From Pseudobutyrivibrio sp. ACV-2 (GTDB lineage Bacteria > Bacillota > Clostridia > Lachnospirales > Lachnospiraceae): a DNA stretch of 64,000 nt. Location of the stretch: positions 1 to 64,000 of the forward strand of contig NZ_FNQZ01000004.1 in assembly GCF_900107545.1 (NCBI RefSeq), read 5' to 3'. Below the pieces are notes generated by a model. The model searched no databases. It saw only the letters and a list, made by a program, of their open reading frames with translations, and was not told the origin of the DNA. A program made the position numbers and the translations under genes. Below, piece by piece: positions 27,193-55,622 of the stretch; position 1 is the first letter of the stretch; each line of letters starts with the position of its first letter.

Positions 27193-27193
27193 A

Positions 27194-27345
27194 ACATTTA
27201 GATAACAAATCAGCTTGAAAAACATGGTAAGCGCGAGCAGGAGGGCCCCATGCCAAGTAAGGAGGGACCCCTTGGGGAGGATTCCTTGCTTGAGTATGGG
27301 AGGTGGCCTGCGGGAGCATGAAGAACTAGGAGGCTGATTTGTTTC
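27194..27345 (+). repeat. Structured intercistronic element A (fabH-fabK gap)
   Basis: A divergent member of the element family described in the findings. The 5' box is CATTTAGAT (27195-27203) and the 3' box GAACTAGG (27323-27330). An outer 11-bp perfect stem, AACAAATCAGC (27204-27214) / GCTGATTTGTT (27333-27343), encloses a long imperfect hairpin built from GCAGG/CCTGC, CCCAT/ATGGG, CAAG/CTTG, AAGGA/TCCTT and CCCC-TT-GGGG. In this copy the 3' box lies inside the outer stem, unlike the other three. Confidence 0.65.
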
Positions 27346-27365
27346 AAGAAGTAGAGGATTAAGCT

Positions 27366-28301
27366 ATGAAATTAAATGATTTAACAGGAACTAAATATCC
27401 TATTATTCAGGGTGGCATGGCAAACATCGCCACAGGTGCATTTGCAGCTGCAGTAAGCAATGCGGGAGCCCTTGGTCTTGTTGCTTCGGGCGGAATGAAT
27501 GCCGAGGCTTTGCGTGAGCAAATTAGAATTTGCAAAAGCAAAACCGACAAGCCATTTGGTGTAAATTTAATGCTGATGAATCCTGATGTAGATAACATCG
27601 CTCAGATGCTCATTGAGGAAAAGGTGCAGTTCATCACAACAGGTGCAGGTAACCCTGGAAAATATATGGCAGGCTGGAAAGCCATGGGTGCAAAGGTATT
27701 TCCAGTAGTTGCATCCGTTGCACTTGCAAAAATGATGGTAAGAGCTGGTGCTGATGCAGTAATCGCAGAGGGCGGTGAGTCAGGCGGTCATGTAGGCGAT
27801 ATGACTACAATGACACTGCTTCCACAGGTGGTTGCAGCAGTAGATGTACCTGTTATTGCAGCAGGCGGTATCGCCACAGGCGAGCAGATGGCAGCAGCTC
27901 TTCTTATGGGTGCCTGTGGCGTTCAGATTGGAACATGCTTACTTGTATCAGAAGAATGCCCAATCCACGAAAATTACAAAGCTGCCCTCATCAAGGCAAA
28001 AGATAACGCTACCACAGTAACAGGCCGCAGCCAGGGTGCACCAGTGCGTATCATCAAAAACGAAATGGCCCGCGAATACCTAAAGCTGGAAGCCGAAGGT
28101 GCCGGCCGAGAAGAACTTGAAAAAATCACACTAGGCGGCCTCCGCCGCGCCGTAGTTGACGGCGACATGATCCGCGGCTCCGTAATGGCCGGCCAAGTCT
28201 GCGGCCAACTCACAGCCATTCGTCCAGCATCATCGATTCTCGATGATATTTACGTAAATGCGAAGCGTACGTTAGAAAACGCTGTTAATATTGCAATTTA
28301 A
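27366..28301 (+). CDS. fabK: Enoyl-ACP reductase II (FMN-dependent)
   Basis: A 311-residue TIM-barrel flavoprotein that performs the last reduction of each elongation cycle. Motifs: YPIIQGGMANIATG at the N-terminus, GGESGGHVG (general acid/base region with His), and the FMN phosphate-binding stretch VPVIAAGGIATGEQ plus GACGVQIGT. It is the FabK type, not FabI, so it would be insensitive to triclosan as in other FabK organisms. From about 27957 the codons become rich in A/C third bases (71 of 90), then revert for the last 24 codons. Confidence 0.95.
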   Translation: MKLNDLTGTKYPIIQGGMANIATGAFAAAVSNAGALGLVASGGMNAEALREQIRICKSKTDKPFGVNLMLMNPDVDNIAQMLIEEKVQFITTGAGNPGKYMAGWKAMGAKVFPVVASVALAKMMVRAGADAVIAEGGESGGHVGDMTTMTLLPQVVAAVDVPVIAAGGIATGEQMAAALLMGACGVQIGTCLLVSEECPIHENYKAALIKAKDNATTVTGRSQGAPVRIIKNEMAREYLKLEAEGAGREELEKITLGGLRRAVVDGDMIRGSVMAGQVCGQLTAIRPASSILDDIYVNAKRTLENAVNIAI

Positions 28302-28303
28302 AA

Positions 28304-28474
28304 GATTTAGATGAGCCCTGCGGGTGGACACACGCAGCTTTGCAATGAGCCCGTAAAGCAACGTCGGCACTTAGCGAGTGGCTTGCCACGAGCTTAGTAC
28401 CGCTACGTTGCGACAAGAGCGAAAGCGCGGCGAATGCAAAGCTGTGTGTGGCCGCCTGCAGGGCGGACTAGGGG
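28304..28474 (+). repeat. Structured intercistronic element B (fabK-fabD gap)
   Basis: 5' box GATTTAGATGAGC (28304-28316), 3' box GCGGACTAGG (28463-28472). Nested stems: GCCCTGC (28315-28321) / GCAGGGC (28458-28464); ACACACGCAGCTTTGCA (28328-28344) / TGCAAAGCTGTGTGTG; GCAACGT (28358-28364) / ACGTTGC (28405-28411); then a GTGGC-TT-GCCAC tip and a separate GC-GAAA-GC hairpin. The final AGGGG serves as the ribosome site of fabD, 6 bases before its ATG. Confidence 0.75.
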
Positions 28475-28480
28475 TAAAAC

Positions 28481-29434
28481 ATGAAACTAGGATTTATATA
28501 CGCTGGCCAAGGTACACAAAAGGTAGGTATGGGCCAGGATTTCTACGATAAATACGAAGATTTTAGGGAGACTATTGACAACGCCACAGCCTCAGTTAAA
28601 AGCGTCACTGACATGGACGTTGCCAAACTTTCATTTGAGGGCCCAATCGAGCAGCTCTCAGACACAAGATACACTCAGCCAGCCATGGTAGCCTTCGCAA
28701 TTGGCGTAACAAAGCTTTTGCATAAGAAGGGCCTTAAGTCTGACTATACCTGTGGCCTTAGTCTGGGTGAGTATTCAGCACTTTACGAAGCAGGTGTTAT
28801 TGACGAGAGCACAATTATGGAGCTTATCGCAAAAAGAGGAAAATACATGTCAGAGACAGCTTCTGATAGAACTGTAAAGATGTGTGCAGTACTTGGGGCA
28901 GACCGAGAGGTTGTTCAGGAAACCTGCGATTATGTAAATAATTTTTACAATGGTGAATTTGTAGTTCAGCCTGCAAATTATAACTGCCCTGGACAGATTG
29001 TAATTTCCGGAGATGCACTTGCTATTGATAAGGCTAGTGCATGTCTGAAGGAAGCAGGAGCAAAGCGCATTTTACCTTTAAAGGTGAGCGGTCCATTCCA
29101 TACAAAGCTTATGAAGCCAGCTGGTGATAAGCTTGCAGAGGAATTTAAAAATGTAGATTTCAATCAGCCAAATTCCAAGGTGGTATTTAATTGCCTTGGC
29201 AAAGAAAAGTCAGAGGATGATAGTGTGGCAAAGCTTCTTGAGAAGCAGGTGCAGTCATCAGTTTATCTGGAGGATTCTATCAAATATATGGCTGATGAGG
29301 GTGTAGATACTATTATCGAAATCGGACCAGGCAAAGCCATCAGTAAGTTTATTAACAAGACAGTAGATGGCGTAAAGGTATATTCAATCGATACTGTAGA
29401 GGACTTTGAAAATATCGTGGAGGAATTGGCATGA
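28481..29434 (+). CDS. fabD: Malonyl-CoA:ACP transacylase
   Basis: A 317-residue enzyme that loads malonyl groups on ACP. The nucleophile is Ser94 in the CGLSLGEYSALYEAG motif, with YAGQGTQKVGMG near the N-terminus and a catalytic histidine in SGPFHTKLM. Its ribosome site comes from the end of element B. The stop overlaps the fabG start by 4 bases (ATGA). Confidence 0.96.
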   Translation: MKLGFIYAGQGTQKVGMGQDFYDKYEDFRETIDNATASVKSVTDMDVAKLSFEGPIEQLSDTRYTQPAMVAFAIGVTKLLHKKGLKSDYTCGLSLGEYSALYEAGVIDESTIMELIAKRGKYMSETASDRTVKMCAVLGADREVVQETCDYVNNFYNGEFVVQPANYNCPGQIVISGDALAIDKASACLKEAGAKRILPLKVSGPFHTKLMKPAGDKLAEEFKNVDFNQPNSKVVFNCLGKEKSEDDSVAKLLEKQVQSSVYLEDSIKYMADEGVDTIIEIGPGKAISKFINKTVDGVKVYSIDTVEDFENIVEELA

Positions 29435-30156
29435 GTGTTGCACTTGTAACAGGCGGAAGCCGAGGTATAGGAAAAGTTATTTCGTTGAATCTTGCTAAAG
29501 CAGGCTTTGATGTGGCTATCTGCTATTCAGGAAATGAAGCTGCAGTACTAGAGACAGTGACTGAGTGTAAGGAACAGGGCGTGCAGGCTATCAGTGTTAA
29601 GGCTGATGTAAGCAATATCGATGATGTAAATGCCATGTTCGAGGAAGTTAAGTCTTCGCTTGGTGCTGTAGAGGTGCTTGTAAATAATGCAGGGATTACA
29701 AAGGATGGCCTTTTAATCCGCATGAGTGAAGCTGATTTTGATTCAGTTATCGATATAAATTTGAAGGGAACCTTCCTGTGCACAAAGGCTGCTATAAAGG
29801 ATATGATGAAGGCCAGACATGGACGTATCATCAATATCACTTCAATAGTAGGTGTGGAAGGAAATCCTGGACAGGCAAATTATTGCGCAAGTAAGGCAGG
29901 AATTATCGGATTTACGAAGTCAGTTGCAAAGGAGTATGGCGCAAAGGGGATTACCGTAAATGCGGTAGCTCCAGGATTTATTCAGACAGCAATGACAGAT
30001 AAGCTTCCTGACAATGTGAAGGAAGCATATTTAAAGCAGATTCCAGTTGGCCGTTTTGGACAGCCAGAGGATATTGCAAATGTAGTTGAATTTTTAGCAT
30101 CAGAAAAGGCAGCTTATGTCACAGGACAGGTTGTTGAAGTTACTGGAGGTATGTAA
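29431..30156 (+). CDS. fabG: 3-oxoacyl-ACP reductase
   Basis: A 241-residue short-chain dehydrogenase. NADPH-binding TGGSRGIGK at 7-15, NNAG at 85-88, and the catalytic Ser138, Tyr151 and Lys155 (YCASKAG). It reduces 3-oxoacyl-ACP. The stop overlaps the fabF start by one base (TAATG), a translational coupling. Its codon use at the 3' end is ordinary (22 of the last 51 third bases are A or C), a useful contrast with fabF. Confidence 0.96.
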   Translation: MSVALVTGGSRGIGKVISLNLAKAGFDVAICYSGNEAAVLETVTECKEQGVQAISVKADVSNIDDVNAMFEEVKSSLGAVEVLVNNAGITKDGLLIRMSEADFDSVIDINLKGTFLCTKAAIKDMMKARHGRIINITSIVGVEGNPGQANYCASKAGIIGFTKSVAKEYGAKGITVNAVAPGFIQTAMTDKLPDNVKEAYLKQIPVGRFGQPEDIANVVEFLASEKAAYVTGQVVEVTGGM

Positions 30157-31388
30157 TGAGAAGAGTAGTGATTACTGGAATGGGTACAGTCAATCCACTT
30201 GCAAATAGTGTCGAGGCTACCTGGGATGCAGTTAAGGAAGGCAAATGTGGTATTGCACCAATAACACGTTTCGATACAACAGATTTTAAGGTAAAGCTTG
30301 CCGGTGAGGTAAAGAACTTCGACCCTACAGAAGTGCTTGATCCAAAGGAAGCAAAGCGAATGGATGTATATAGCCAGTATGCCTGCGCAGCAGCCAAAGA
30401 AGCAATGGCAGATTCCGGCCTTGAAATGGAAAAGGAAAATGCAGATAGAGTAGGTTGTATCGTATCATCAGGAATCGGTGGACTTTCAACAATCGCTGAG
30501 GAGCATACAAAGGGAGAGACAAAGGGCTATAACAGAATTTCTCCTTTCTTTATTCCTATGTCTATCAGCAACATGGCAGCAGGTCAGATTGCTATCATGT
30601 TTGGACTTAAGGGTATCTGCACATCGGTAGTAACAGCCTGCGCCAGCTCAAACAATGCCATTGGCGATTCCTTCCATAGAATACGTGATGGCTATGAAGA
30701 TGTAATGGTTTGTGGCGGTGCAGAAGGTGTGGTTATGCCACTTGCCATCGGAGGCTTCCAGTCAATGAAAGCACTTTGCACCAGTGAGGACCCAAATCGT
30801 GCATCTATCCCATTTGATAAAGAAAGACATGGTTTTGTACTTGGCGAAGGTGCAGGAATTCTTGTTATAGAAGAGCTTGAGCATGCCAAGGCTCGTGGCG
30901 CAAAAATCTATGCAGAAATCGTAGGCTACGGAACAAACTGCGATGCATATCATATCACAGCTCCAAACCCAGAAGGGGAAGGCGGCGCAAAGTGTATGAC
31001 ACTTGCCGTAAAGGATGCAGGTCTTGAAATGACTGACGTAGACTACATCAATGCACATGGAACCAGCACAAGCCTTAACGATGCAGGTGAAACCCTTGCA
31101 ATCAAAAAGGCTTTTGGCGACCACGCATACAAACTCATGGTAAGCTCAACCAAATCCATGACAGGCCACTTACTTGGTGCAGCAGGAGCAGTAGAAGCAA
31201 TCATCACAACCCTTGCCCTCAAAAACAGCTTCGTCCCAGCTACAATCAACTATCGCGAAAAAGACGAAGCCTGCGACTTAGACATCGTTCCAAACCAAGG
31301 CCGCAACGCCGACATCAACGTAGCGTTATCAAACGCACTTGGTTTCGGAGGCCACAACGCGTCAATCGTATTTAAGAAGTATGCGTAA
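30156..31388 (+). CDS. fabF: 3-oxoacyl-ACP synthase II
   Basis: A 410-residue elongation condensing enzyme. Catalytic Cys162 (VVTACASSNNAIG), His301 (NAHGTSTSLND) and His338 (KSMTGHLLGAAGAVE). No FabA/FabB or FabM-type isomerase lies in the cluster, so how unsaturated acids are made is not shown here. The last 89 codons have A or C in third position in 72 cases, directly ahead of element C. Confidence 0.96.
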   Translation: MRRVVITGMGTVNPLANSVEATWDAVKEGKCGIAPITRFDTTDFKVKLAGEVKNFDPTEVLDPKEAKRMDVYSQYACAAAKEAMADSGLEMEKENADRVGCIVSSGIGGLSTIAEEHTKGETKGYNRISPFFIPMSISNMAAGQIAIMFGLKGICTSVVTACASSNNAIGDSFHRIRDGYEDVMVCGGAEGVVMPLAIGGFQSMKALCTSEDPNRASIPFDKERHGFVLGEGAGILVIEELEHAKARGAKIYAEIVGYGTNCDAYHITAPNPEGEGGAKCMTLAVKDAGLEMTDVDYINAHGTSTSLNDAGETLAIKKAFGDHAYKLMVSSTKSMTGHLLGAAGAVEAIITTLALKNSFVPATINYREKDEACDLDIVPNQGRNADINVALSNALGFGGHNASIVFKKYA

Positions 31389-31433
31389 CTAATCCAATAC
31401 GTAGAGGTACAAGGATTTAATTGAAACTGAAAT

Positions 31434-31655
31434 CATTTAGATGAGCTGATGTTACACAGGCTCAAAAACTGTAGCCAATTTATTTAAGAAGAAGTTTTCA
31501 TCTTTAACACTACAGTGAGCCAGTAGCTGTCAAGAATGTGTACCTATTTTTGAGGAGTATAGCGAAAGCGATCTCAAAAATAGGTACACATTCTTGATAG
31601 CGTAACTGGCGGGCTAAAGGTATTCGCAGCCTGTGTAATATCAGCGGACTAGGAG
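31434..31655 (+). repeat. Structured intercistronic element C (fabF-fabZ gap)
   Basis: 5' box CATTTAGATGAGC (31434-31446), 3' box GCGGACTAGG (31644-31653). Outer stem GCTGAT-TTACACAGGCT near 31445-31462 pairs with AGCCTGTGTAA-ATCAGC ending at 31645. An inner arm is a very long hairpin: CCAGT and TCAAGAATGTGTACCTATTT (from about 31530) pair with AAATAGGTACACATTCTTGA and ACTGG; its loop carries AGCGAAAGCG. The terminal AGGAG is the ribosome site of fabZ. No open frame of useful length is present. Confidence 0.75.
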
Positions 31656-31660
31656 CATAT

Positions 31661-34276: not shown

Positions 34277-34295
34277 CTATATGAATTAAATAGGA

Positions 34296-34404
34296 AATCT
34301 TCAGGGCAGGGTGTGAGTCCCTACCGGTGGTATAGCCCACGAGCCGCAAGGCATGATTCGGTGTGATTCCGAAGCCGACAGTATAGTCTGGATGGAAGAA
34401 GATG
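34296..34404 (+). ncRNA. FMN riboswitch (RFN element)
   Basis: The conserved RFN landmarks appear in order: ATCTTCAGGGCAGGGTG, TCCCTACCGGTGGTA, AGCCCACGAGCCGC, GATTCGGTGTGATTCCGAAG, GCCGACAGT and the closing GGATGGAAGAAGAT. It binds flavin mononucleotide. A terminator hairpin follows, and its 5' arm (GCCCTGA, 34427-34433) can also pair with TCAGGGC at 34301-34307 inside the aptamer, an obvious antiterminator. So FMN should shut off the downstream riboflavin importer. Confidence 0.96.
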
Positions 34405-34426
34405 TACAGTTATTTTAGTACTTGAT

Positions 34427-55414: not shown

Positions 55415-55478
55415 CGTAAATACGAATATTTGTGAACACGCACCCGTAAATCCGTAAATGCAAATTTACGCATTTACG
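55415..55478. repeat. Palindrome-rich gap: CGTAAATACG and a GTAAATGC hairpin
   Basis: Directly after the SseB gene lies CGTAAATACG (55415-55424), then ACCCGTAAATCCG and a hairpin with arms CGTAAATGC (55453-55461) / GCATTTACG (55470-55478) and an 8-base loop. All share the CGTAAAT core. The hairpin lacks a T-run, so it is not a clear terminator. Confidence 0.55.
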
Positions 55479-55517
55479 TACTTATCCAGTAAATTGGATT
55501 GGCAAGAACATCATAAG

Positions 55518-55622
55518 CATCTAGATGAGCTGGTAGGTAACAATGATTAGGTCTCTTAAGGGAGACATTCTAAGTCGACCGTAGAGACCTAATCATTGTT
55601 ACCGTAACCGGCGGACTATAGG
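55518..55622 (+). repeat. Structured element D, upstream of the MFS gene
   Basis: 5' box CATCTAGATGAGC (55518-55530), 3' box GCGGACTATAGG (55611-55622). Outer stem GCTGGT / ACCGGC and a perfect 20-bp inner stem GGTAACAATGATTAGGTCTC / GAGACCTAATCATTGTTACC, loop about 28 bases. The boxes match elements B and C in the fab operon while the stem sequence is unrelated. Here the downstream start codon is 45 bases away with its own GGGGGAG. Confidence 0.75.

What the first reader, a model, noticed from the sequence alone, without database searches (positions are those of the whole stretch)
27194..31655. A family of boxed, variable-stem RNA-like elements fills every large gap in the fab operon
Seen: the acc-fab operon is very compact (gaps of -4 to 61 bp) except for three gaps of 173, 179 and 272 bp. 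Each holds an element with a 5' box near CATYTAGATGAGC and a 3' box near GCGGACTAGG. Between the boxes are long nested stems whose sequences differ completely from copy to copy but stay self-complementary. In elements B and C the 3' box itself supplies the ribosome site (AGGGG, AGGAG) of fabD and fabZ. Element A is divergent. The TTTAG of the 5' box can pair with CTAGG of the 3' box. Inference: this may be an undescribed structured RNA or miniature mobile element that sets the relative output of fab genes by processing, stability or ribosome-site access. I do not recognise a named RNA family.
Basis: partly seen in the sequence, partly recalled or inferred. Interest (0 to 1): 0.82.

Follow-up and report, generated by a model that had tools for sequence, protein, structure and literature searches.

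The report
Repeated RNA hairpins between operon genes
The odd gaps in this fatty-acid gene cluster hold members of an apparently undescribed set of folded repeats that sits, in dozens of copies per genome, between neighbouring genes of one genus of gut bacteria, where the folds stay paired even as their letters change.

Summary
The three fab-operon gaps hold three kinds of structured intergenic repeat: A is a type 3, B a type 2, and C an outer hairpin with a nested type 1. A fourth copy, D, lies at 55520-55618. Type 1 has 64 matches in this genome (Pseudobutyrivibrio) and occurs in 28 of 29 genus genomes. A less sensitive search found it in 0 of 297 other Lachnospiraceae. Pairing covaries strongly (95% of cells paired; 32-44% when partners are slid), and the sense strand folds. 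In 21 fab operons all 25 gaps over 100 nt at the three junctions hold an element. Near relatives differ in presence, so elements come and go. Yet in six orthologous groups the element is 93-100% identical, mostly more than its flanks, and at ilvD its outer stem changed pair by pair. No Rfam family matches at its gathering score. Y1 transposases and reverse transcriptases do not account for the spread. Best reading: a non-autonomous mobile repeat kept as an intercistronic RNA hairpin, like ERIC or BOX in kind but apparently a new family. Its effect on expression is inferred. Pairing of the two boxes is not supported.

The parts
27195..27343 (+). Element A: hairpin (outer arms 27204-27214 and 27333-27343) holding a type 3 module (27226-27322); fabH-fabK gap
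   Evidence: Coordinates; pattern match 27231-27318; alignment A6 and fold
28306..28472 (+). Element B: box-framed type 2 element, core 28326-28452; fabK-fabD gap
   Evidence: Boxes; model R2 129.7 bits, (B is one of the 7 sequences R2 was built from)
31436..31653 (+). Element C: outer box-framed hairpin with a nested type 1 copy; fabF-fabZ gap
   Evidence: Boxes; fold
31513..31616 (+). Type 1 copy nested inside element C
   Evidence: Model R1 53.8 bits
55520..55618 (+). Element D: canonical type 1 copy, 48 nt before a transporter-like gene
   Evidence: R1 100.2 bits, (D is in the alignment R1 was built from); inverted repeat

Best explanation
These are members of at least three families (types 1, 2, 3) of dispersed, structured intergenic repeats of Pseudobutyrivibrio. 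Shown by sequence: they are genus-wide; the strand read with the operon is the one that folds best; they lie mostly between co-directional genes, shortly before the next start codon; they are present or absent between near relatives and can be nested or in tandem; at shared sites they are nearly unchanged or changed pair by pair. Inferred: they spread as small non-autonomous mobile elements; once between two genes they part the cistrons, lie next to (and sometimes bring) the ribosome site of the next gene, and act in cis as a co-transcribed hairpin on stability or processing of the mRNA to either side. That general intercistronic role, not control of one pathway, is why the fold is held by selection.
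For: Copy number and range. Covariation. Sense strand: outside helix 1, 146 G-T/T-G cells against 14 A-C/C-A in type 1; 48 against 9 in type 2. Orientation: 50 with and 6 against both neighbours. Fab gaps: 25 of 25 over 100 nt filled, all sense. Gain and loss. Nesting and tandem. Constraint at fixed sites. No common pathway downstream.
Against: No transcript data. Nine of 38 elements in the polysaccharide operon are antisense by my reading of the map, and some recur antisense at one junction in more than one species, which argues against a strict need for sense orientation. No clean insertion ends, no target duplication, no mobiliser found. Near-identity at shared sites could also come from gene conversion or transfer within the genus. 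The fabZ orthologues are hardly more conserved than their flanks (93% against 90-92%). Model-fitted alignments favour the fitted structure.
Confidence: 0.5

Rival explanations
1. Purely selfish MITE-like DNA: the hairpin is needed only for movement, and resident copies have no effect that selection sees.
For: High copy number, presence/absence between relatives (1 site shared of 9 in the G002/G003 stretches), nesting, tandem copies, mixed genes downstream. Pneumococcal BOX and RUP were judged parasitic by their authors (PMC3049150, passages).
Against: At orthologous sites the element changes less than its flanks in five of six groups, and the ilvD outer stem changed pair by pair.
Confidence: 0.25
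2. A DNA-level hairpin site: one strand folds as single-stranded DNA and is bound by a recombinase or transposase, as with REP or attC sites.
For: Strand-polar pairing, cores inside other hairpins, and an almost invariant GTAG beside the type 1 stem that recalls REP (recalled).
Against: Y1 transposases in only 10 of 29 genomes, none in several high-copy ones; constraint after insertion. Orientation against replication was not tested.
Confidence: 0.12
3. A cis-regulatory leader of riboswitch or protein-bound type controlling a defined regulon.
For: Places shortly before starts (37 of 52 within 70 nt), sites shared across species, several branched-chain amino-acid genes among the targets.
Against: Targets mix GTPases, purine, pyrimidine, flagellar, hydrogenase, fatty-acid and polysaccharide genes; presence varies between near relatives.
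Confidence: 0.08
4. Ordinary transcription terminators or attenuators.
For: Some cores lie in the loop of terminator-like stems followed by T runs (G024 and its G004 counterpart, G004 L321).
Against: No T run follows the 3' arm in the window elements or in most of the copies listed, by inspection.
Confidence: 0.05

Closest known systems
ERIC / IRU (RU-1) of enterobacteria
   Same: 127-bp intergenic repeats with stem-loop transcripts, co-transcribed with neighbours, reported to affect mRNA stability in an orientation-dependent way (PMC2229807, passages)
   Different: ERIC has 7-bp terminal repeats and target duplications in that review's table, neither shown here; other bacteria; no sequence comparison was made
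BOX, RUP and SPRITE of Streptococcus pneumoniae
   Same: Genus- or species-restricted, high-copy, strongly folded, modular (BOX), some terminator-like (SPRITE) (PMC3049150, passages)
   Different: BOX varies by modules and RUP has a proposed IS partner; here stems change pair by pair and cores nest in one another; no sequence comparison was made
Correia / NEMIS of Neisseria
   Same: About 107-155 bp mobile repeats with stem-loop transcripts, seen as filled and empty sites (PMC2229807, passages)
   Different: 24-bp terminal inverted repeats and target duplications; none shown here
REP elements with RAYT (Y1) transposases
   Same: Small dispersed hairpins; a GTAG beside the stem (the REP motif is recalled)
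   Different: Y1 proteins missing from many high-copy genomes

Membership tests
MITE | Small (<200 bp), non-coding, high-copy, folded | tested here: met
   Type 1 about 97 nt; up to 138 matches per genome
MITE | Presence/absence at orthologous sites | tested here: met
MITE | Terminal inverted repeats and target-site duplication | tested here: inconclusive
   Ends TAG...CTA could pair but do not covary; insertion ends unclear and no duplication recognised by eye
MITE | Partner transposase with matching ends | not tested
   Only the Y1 and reverse-transcriptase protein families were searched; insertion-sequence ends were not
REP / RAYT | Y1 (RAYT-type) transposase in genomes with the repeat | tested here: not met
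   PF01797 in 10 of 29 genomes; absent from G003, G004, G012, G022 and G026 with 68-102 type 1 matches
ERIC, BOX, RUP, Correia | Sequence homology to the published consensus | not tested
Any Rfam 15 family | Match at or above gathering score | tested here: met
   The test was run and came out negative for the elements: only an FMN riboswitch elsewhere in the window reached gathering score; below it nothing convincing, see the report
Group II intron or retron type (reverse-transcribed) element | Resident reverse transcriptase | tested here: not met
   PF00078 in 14 of 29 genomes; absent from G003, G004, G007, G012 and G021 with 68-106 type 1 matches

The most novel reading that the evidence does not exclude
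A genus-wide system of intercistronic RNA modules: three interchangeable hairpin families, read by a common trans-acting factor through their shared purine-rich (GA) internal loops, have been placed at operon junctions and kept there to set cistron-by-cistron output. It would be a mobile, modular post-transcriptional punctuation of operons rather than an inert repeat.
Probability: 0.2. Interest if true: 0.92.

Novelty: new variant of a known kind. Interest (0 to 1): 0.72.

Why it matters
Small interspersed repeats are usually treated as inert or parasitic. Here a set with dozens of copies per genome shows compensatory change and constraint at fixed sites, and it fills many junctions of some operons. 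Relatives are in hand with filled, empty and swapped states of the same junction, so the old question whether such repeats set expression of the genes around them becomes directly testable. It also appears to be an RNA family absent from Rfam, in a genus of rumen and gut bacteria.

Tried and rejected
Boxes alone as a search key: of little use, since by inspection 17 of 22 exact TTTAGATGAGC copies in the genome look coding, several of them the LDEP of ABC ATPases.

Pairing of the 5' and 3' boxes: not supported as a covarying helix.

A phage source: 18 viral stretches match the type 1 pattern; none has the 6 or more base pairs next to the boxes that the genus copies have. Six match the type 3 pattern; on inspection none shares more than the pattern's ends with type 3.

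REP/RAYT and reverse-transcriptase mobilisers: not supported. Other transposase families were not searched.

A GTAAC target duplication at the G024/G004 terminator: considered, but other copies do not carry GTAAC twice, so deletion between short repeats in G004 is as likely.

A kink-turn reading of the ATGA/GGA loop: considered from memory, does not fit well, not pursued.

Literature (held open-licence library only): Pseudobutyrivibrio with 'intergenic repeat' 0 papers and with 'miniature inverted' 0; Butyrivibrio with repeat element, hairpin and intergenic 0; Lachnospiraceae with structured RNA, covariation and motif 0. Ten papers hold Pseudobutyrivibrio and noncoding RNA; by titles and starts of abstracts none is about this. 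A search for MITE with compensatory mutations, RNA structure, operon and bacteria gave one paper, on Porphyromonas (listing only).
Full report
1. Check of the observation. The operon has gaps of 173 (27193-27365), 179 (28302-28480) and 272 nt (31389-31660). B and C carry both boxes exactly. A has TTTAGAT and GAACTAGGAGG but no true 3' box. Box matches alone are not above chance in the window.

2. More copies. The two boxes 61-121 nt apart occur 38 times in 18 of 29 genus genomes; the reversed control gives 0. Of 31 such matches that I had as loci or in the window, 30 fold as a hairpin closing on the boxes; the 78-nt one (L049) does not. Four of the 30 (L034, L039, L056, L058) have other inner modules. 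Of 131 matches in the fetched genome and viral loci, 13 have 6 or more base pairs next to the boxes. Ten of the 13 have titles shown, all Pseudobutyrivibrio; the other three (L164, L165, L168) carry the letters of genus copies L029, L036 and L044. So I take the window to be Pseudobutyrivibrio.

3. Type 1. From 26 copies (A2) I built model R1. It matches 28 of 29 genus genomes at E<=0.1, 0-138 matches each, 64 here (65 at E<=1). At most 142 candidates per genome were scored, and three of four tandem copies seen later are not among the 64, so these are lower bounds. In 299 family genomes only the 2 of this genus match, 0 of 297 others. That search scored only 13 candidates per genome (13 found here rather than 64), so it excludes strong copies, not all. 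On 114 copies (A3; 113 distinct; fitted to R1 and including its training copies), 33 pairs are 95.0% paired, with 956 cells changed on both sides against 255 shuffled; slid partners give 31.7-44.3%. Helix 1, the TAG/CTA of the boxes, is the exception at 82.3%. Outside helix 1 the table gives 146 G-T or T-G cells against 14 A-C or C-A, so the sense strand folds.

4. Types 2 and 3. Element B is type 2. Model R2, from 7 copies all out of fab operons (A4), matches 26 of 29 genus genomes at E<=1e-5, 0-15 each, 2 here. On 40 copies (including the 7), 39 pairs are 96.2% paired, score 0.703 against 0.175 shuffled; G-T/T-G 48 against A-C/C-A 9. Element A is type 3: an exact pattern finds 126 copies in 25 of 29 genomes, control 0. 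In 397 family genomes it hits 3: two of this genus, and one single match elsewhere that by eye shares only the pattern's ends. Covariation of type 3 is weak in my 8-copy alignment: 8 of 22 pairs with a double change, otherwise invariant or one-sided. C is a box-framed outer hairpin with a nested type 1 copy.

5. Rfam. In the window only an FMN riboswitch (34293-34407) reaches gathering score. With relaxed limits the fab stretch and five type 1 loci gave 7 matches, mostly eukaryotic families with E 0.4-5. The best, a microRNA precursor on the reverse strand of C's long stem (E 0.0006, 25.1 bits against a gathering score of 500), I take as chance.

6. Where they sit. For the 64 copies here (simple ORF caller), both neighbours are co-directional with the element in 50 and opposed in 6 (two-sided binomial 1e-9); 5 are convergent, 2 divergent, 1 unresolved. 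Where the next gene is co-directional (52), the median distance to its start is 53.5 nt, and 37 of 52 lie within 70 nt. Of 53 downstream ORFs I gave 40 to NCBIfam; 31 had a match at E<=1e-20. Among them are SmpB, ObgE, Era, Der, NrdR, RF2, HydG, PurM, PyrF, HisH, UppP, acetolactate synthase, 2-isopropylmalate synthase and (cut short by the locus end, below cut-off) TypA: no common pathway.

7. The fab operon across the genus. FabD was found in 28 of 29 genomes; I fetched the operon from 20 of the 27 others. In these 21 operons the three junctions have 25 gaps over 100 nt: 9 fabH-fabK, 7 fabK-fabD, 9 fabF-fabZ. The fabH-fabK gap of G001 could not be measured. All 25 hold an element in sense orientation: 24 by R1 or R2 and A by the type 3 pattern. 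Seven of the 24 are R2's own training sequences. Elsewhere these junctions are short: fabF and fabZ overlap (-10 to -1) in 9 of 21. fabD-fabG (20 measured) and fabG-fabF (21) never exceed 42 nt. Some short gaps hold what look like remnants of the boxes.

8. Other operons. In four 20-kb stretches, chosen because R2 hits cluster there, a polysaccharide operon carries 8-11 elements of types 1 and 2 each, 38 in all. It holds glf, rmlA, rmlC and a LegC-type aminotransferase in G011 and rmlD and rmlB in G022; the other copies of these genes I matched by eye. Type 2 lies before rmlC, before the aminotransferase and after it in all four stretches. By my reading of the map 29 of 38 are sense and 9 antisense; antisense copies recur at rmlB-glf and beside rmlD in more than one species.

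9. Gain, loss, nesting. In 200-kb stretches round fab of G002 and G003 (fabF 92% identical), R1 finds 4 and 6 copies at 60 bits or more; a 26-bit, 32-nt hit in G002 was dropped; one site is shared. I gave the best 26 of the 30 matches; for some, flanks were not found in the partner. At several sites the relative has abutting or nearly abutting genes; at others it has a different element or other sequence. In G024 a type 1 core lies inside a terminator-like stem whose G004 counterpart lacks it, and in G022 a copy lies in the loop of another. One locus here has four copies about 100 nt apart with different but paired stems. Insertion ends are unclear, and I saw no target duplication.

10. Constraint at fixed sites. 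Of 68 copies in other genomes, 54 have a co-directional ORF of 60 aa or more within 250 nt; 19 of the 54 share that gene with a copy here. A twentieth row, L035, hits only a related GTPase and was dropped. Six of the 19 come from stretches chosen around fab, three being fabZ. By rough arithmetic about one would be expected by chance. In 18 same-gene groups, pair comparisons run 846 same, 320 changed on both sides, 52 on one side with pairing kept, 52 broken; the more divergent of these may be old orthologues or replacements. In six groups the copies look plainly orthologous. The ilvD leader (named by eye) of four species is 94-98% identical in the element, against 78-90% upstream and 87-93% downstream. 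Its inner part is the same but for one position, while the outer two pairs read TA/TA, TG/CA and CT/AG. The other groups are 99%, 100%, 98%, 99% and 93% identical against flanks of 82-96%; the last, fabZ, barely exceeds its flanks (90-92%).

11. Mobiliser. Y1 transposases are in 10 of 29 genomes, reverse transcriptases in 14 of 29. G003, G004 and G012, with 73, 68 and 76 type 1 matches, have neither. Other families were not searched.

12. What it works like and what it is. In kind it is closest to ERIC, BOX, RUP and Correia elements (passages of PMC2229807, and PMC3049150). It shows the size, copy number, folding and polymorphism of MITEs, but terminal repeats, target duplications and a partner transposase are not shown, and REP/RAYT membership fails. 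I call it a new variant of a known kind. The preferred mechanism, a mobile repeat kept as an intercistronic hairpin acting on the mRNA in cis, is shown as far as fold, strand, place and constraint go; the effect on expression is inference, at even odds.

Noticed in passing
window 34293-34407 (+): FMN riboswitch, 112 bits.
   Followed up: no
window 55447-55484: Inverted repeat rich in CGTAAAT just before element D; similar ACGTA-rich stretches follow stop codons in some fab gaps of relatives.
   Followed up: no
genome C37:88330-93998: A Y1 transposase stretch and a reverse-transcriptase stretch, both with stop codons inside, lie within about 6 kb, next to a further reverse-transcriptase stretch without stops.
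   Followed up: no
L276 1269-1667: Four type 1 copies in tandem about 100 nt apart before an oxidase-like gene, with stems that differ but still pair.
   Followed up: partly
L371-L374: A rhamnose/polysaccharide operon with 8-11 type 1 and type 2 elements per 20 kb in four genomes, several at the same junction in all four.
   Followed up: partly
own copies listed, e.g. C23:56185-56279, C37:128307-128404: A second frame around type 1 cores, ATAGC ... GCGAGCCA followed by an ACCTA, in place of the two boxes of the finding.
   Followed up: no
L020 and the G024 stretch: Another intergenic repeat of the form GCCTTCNCCC...GGGNGAAGG...GGATGAGG.
   Followed up: no
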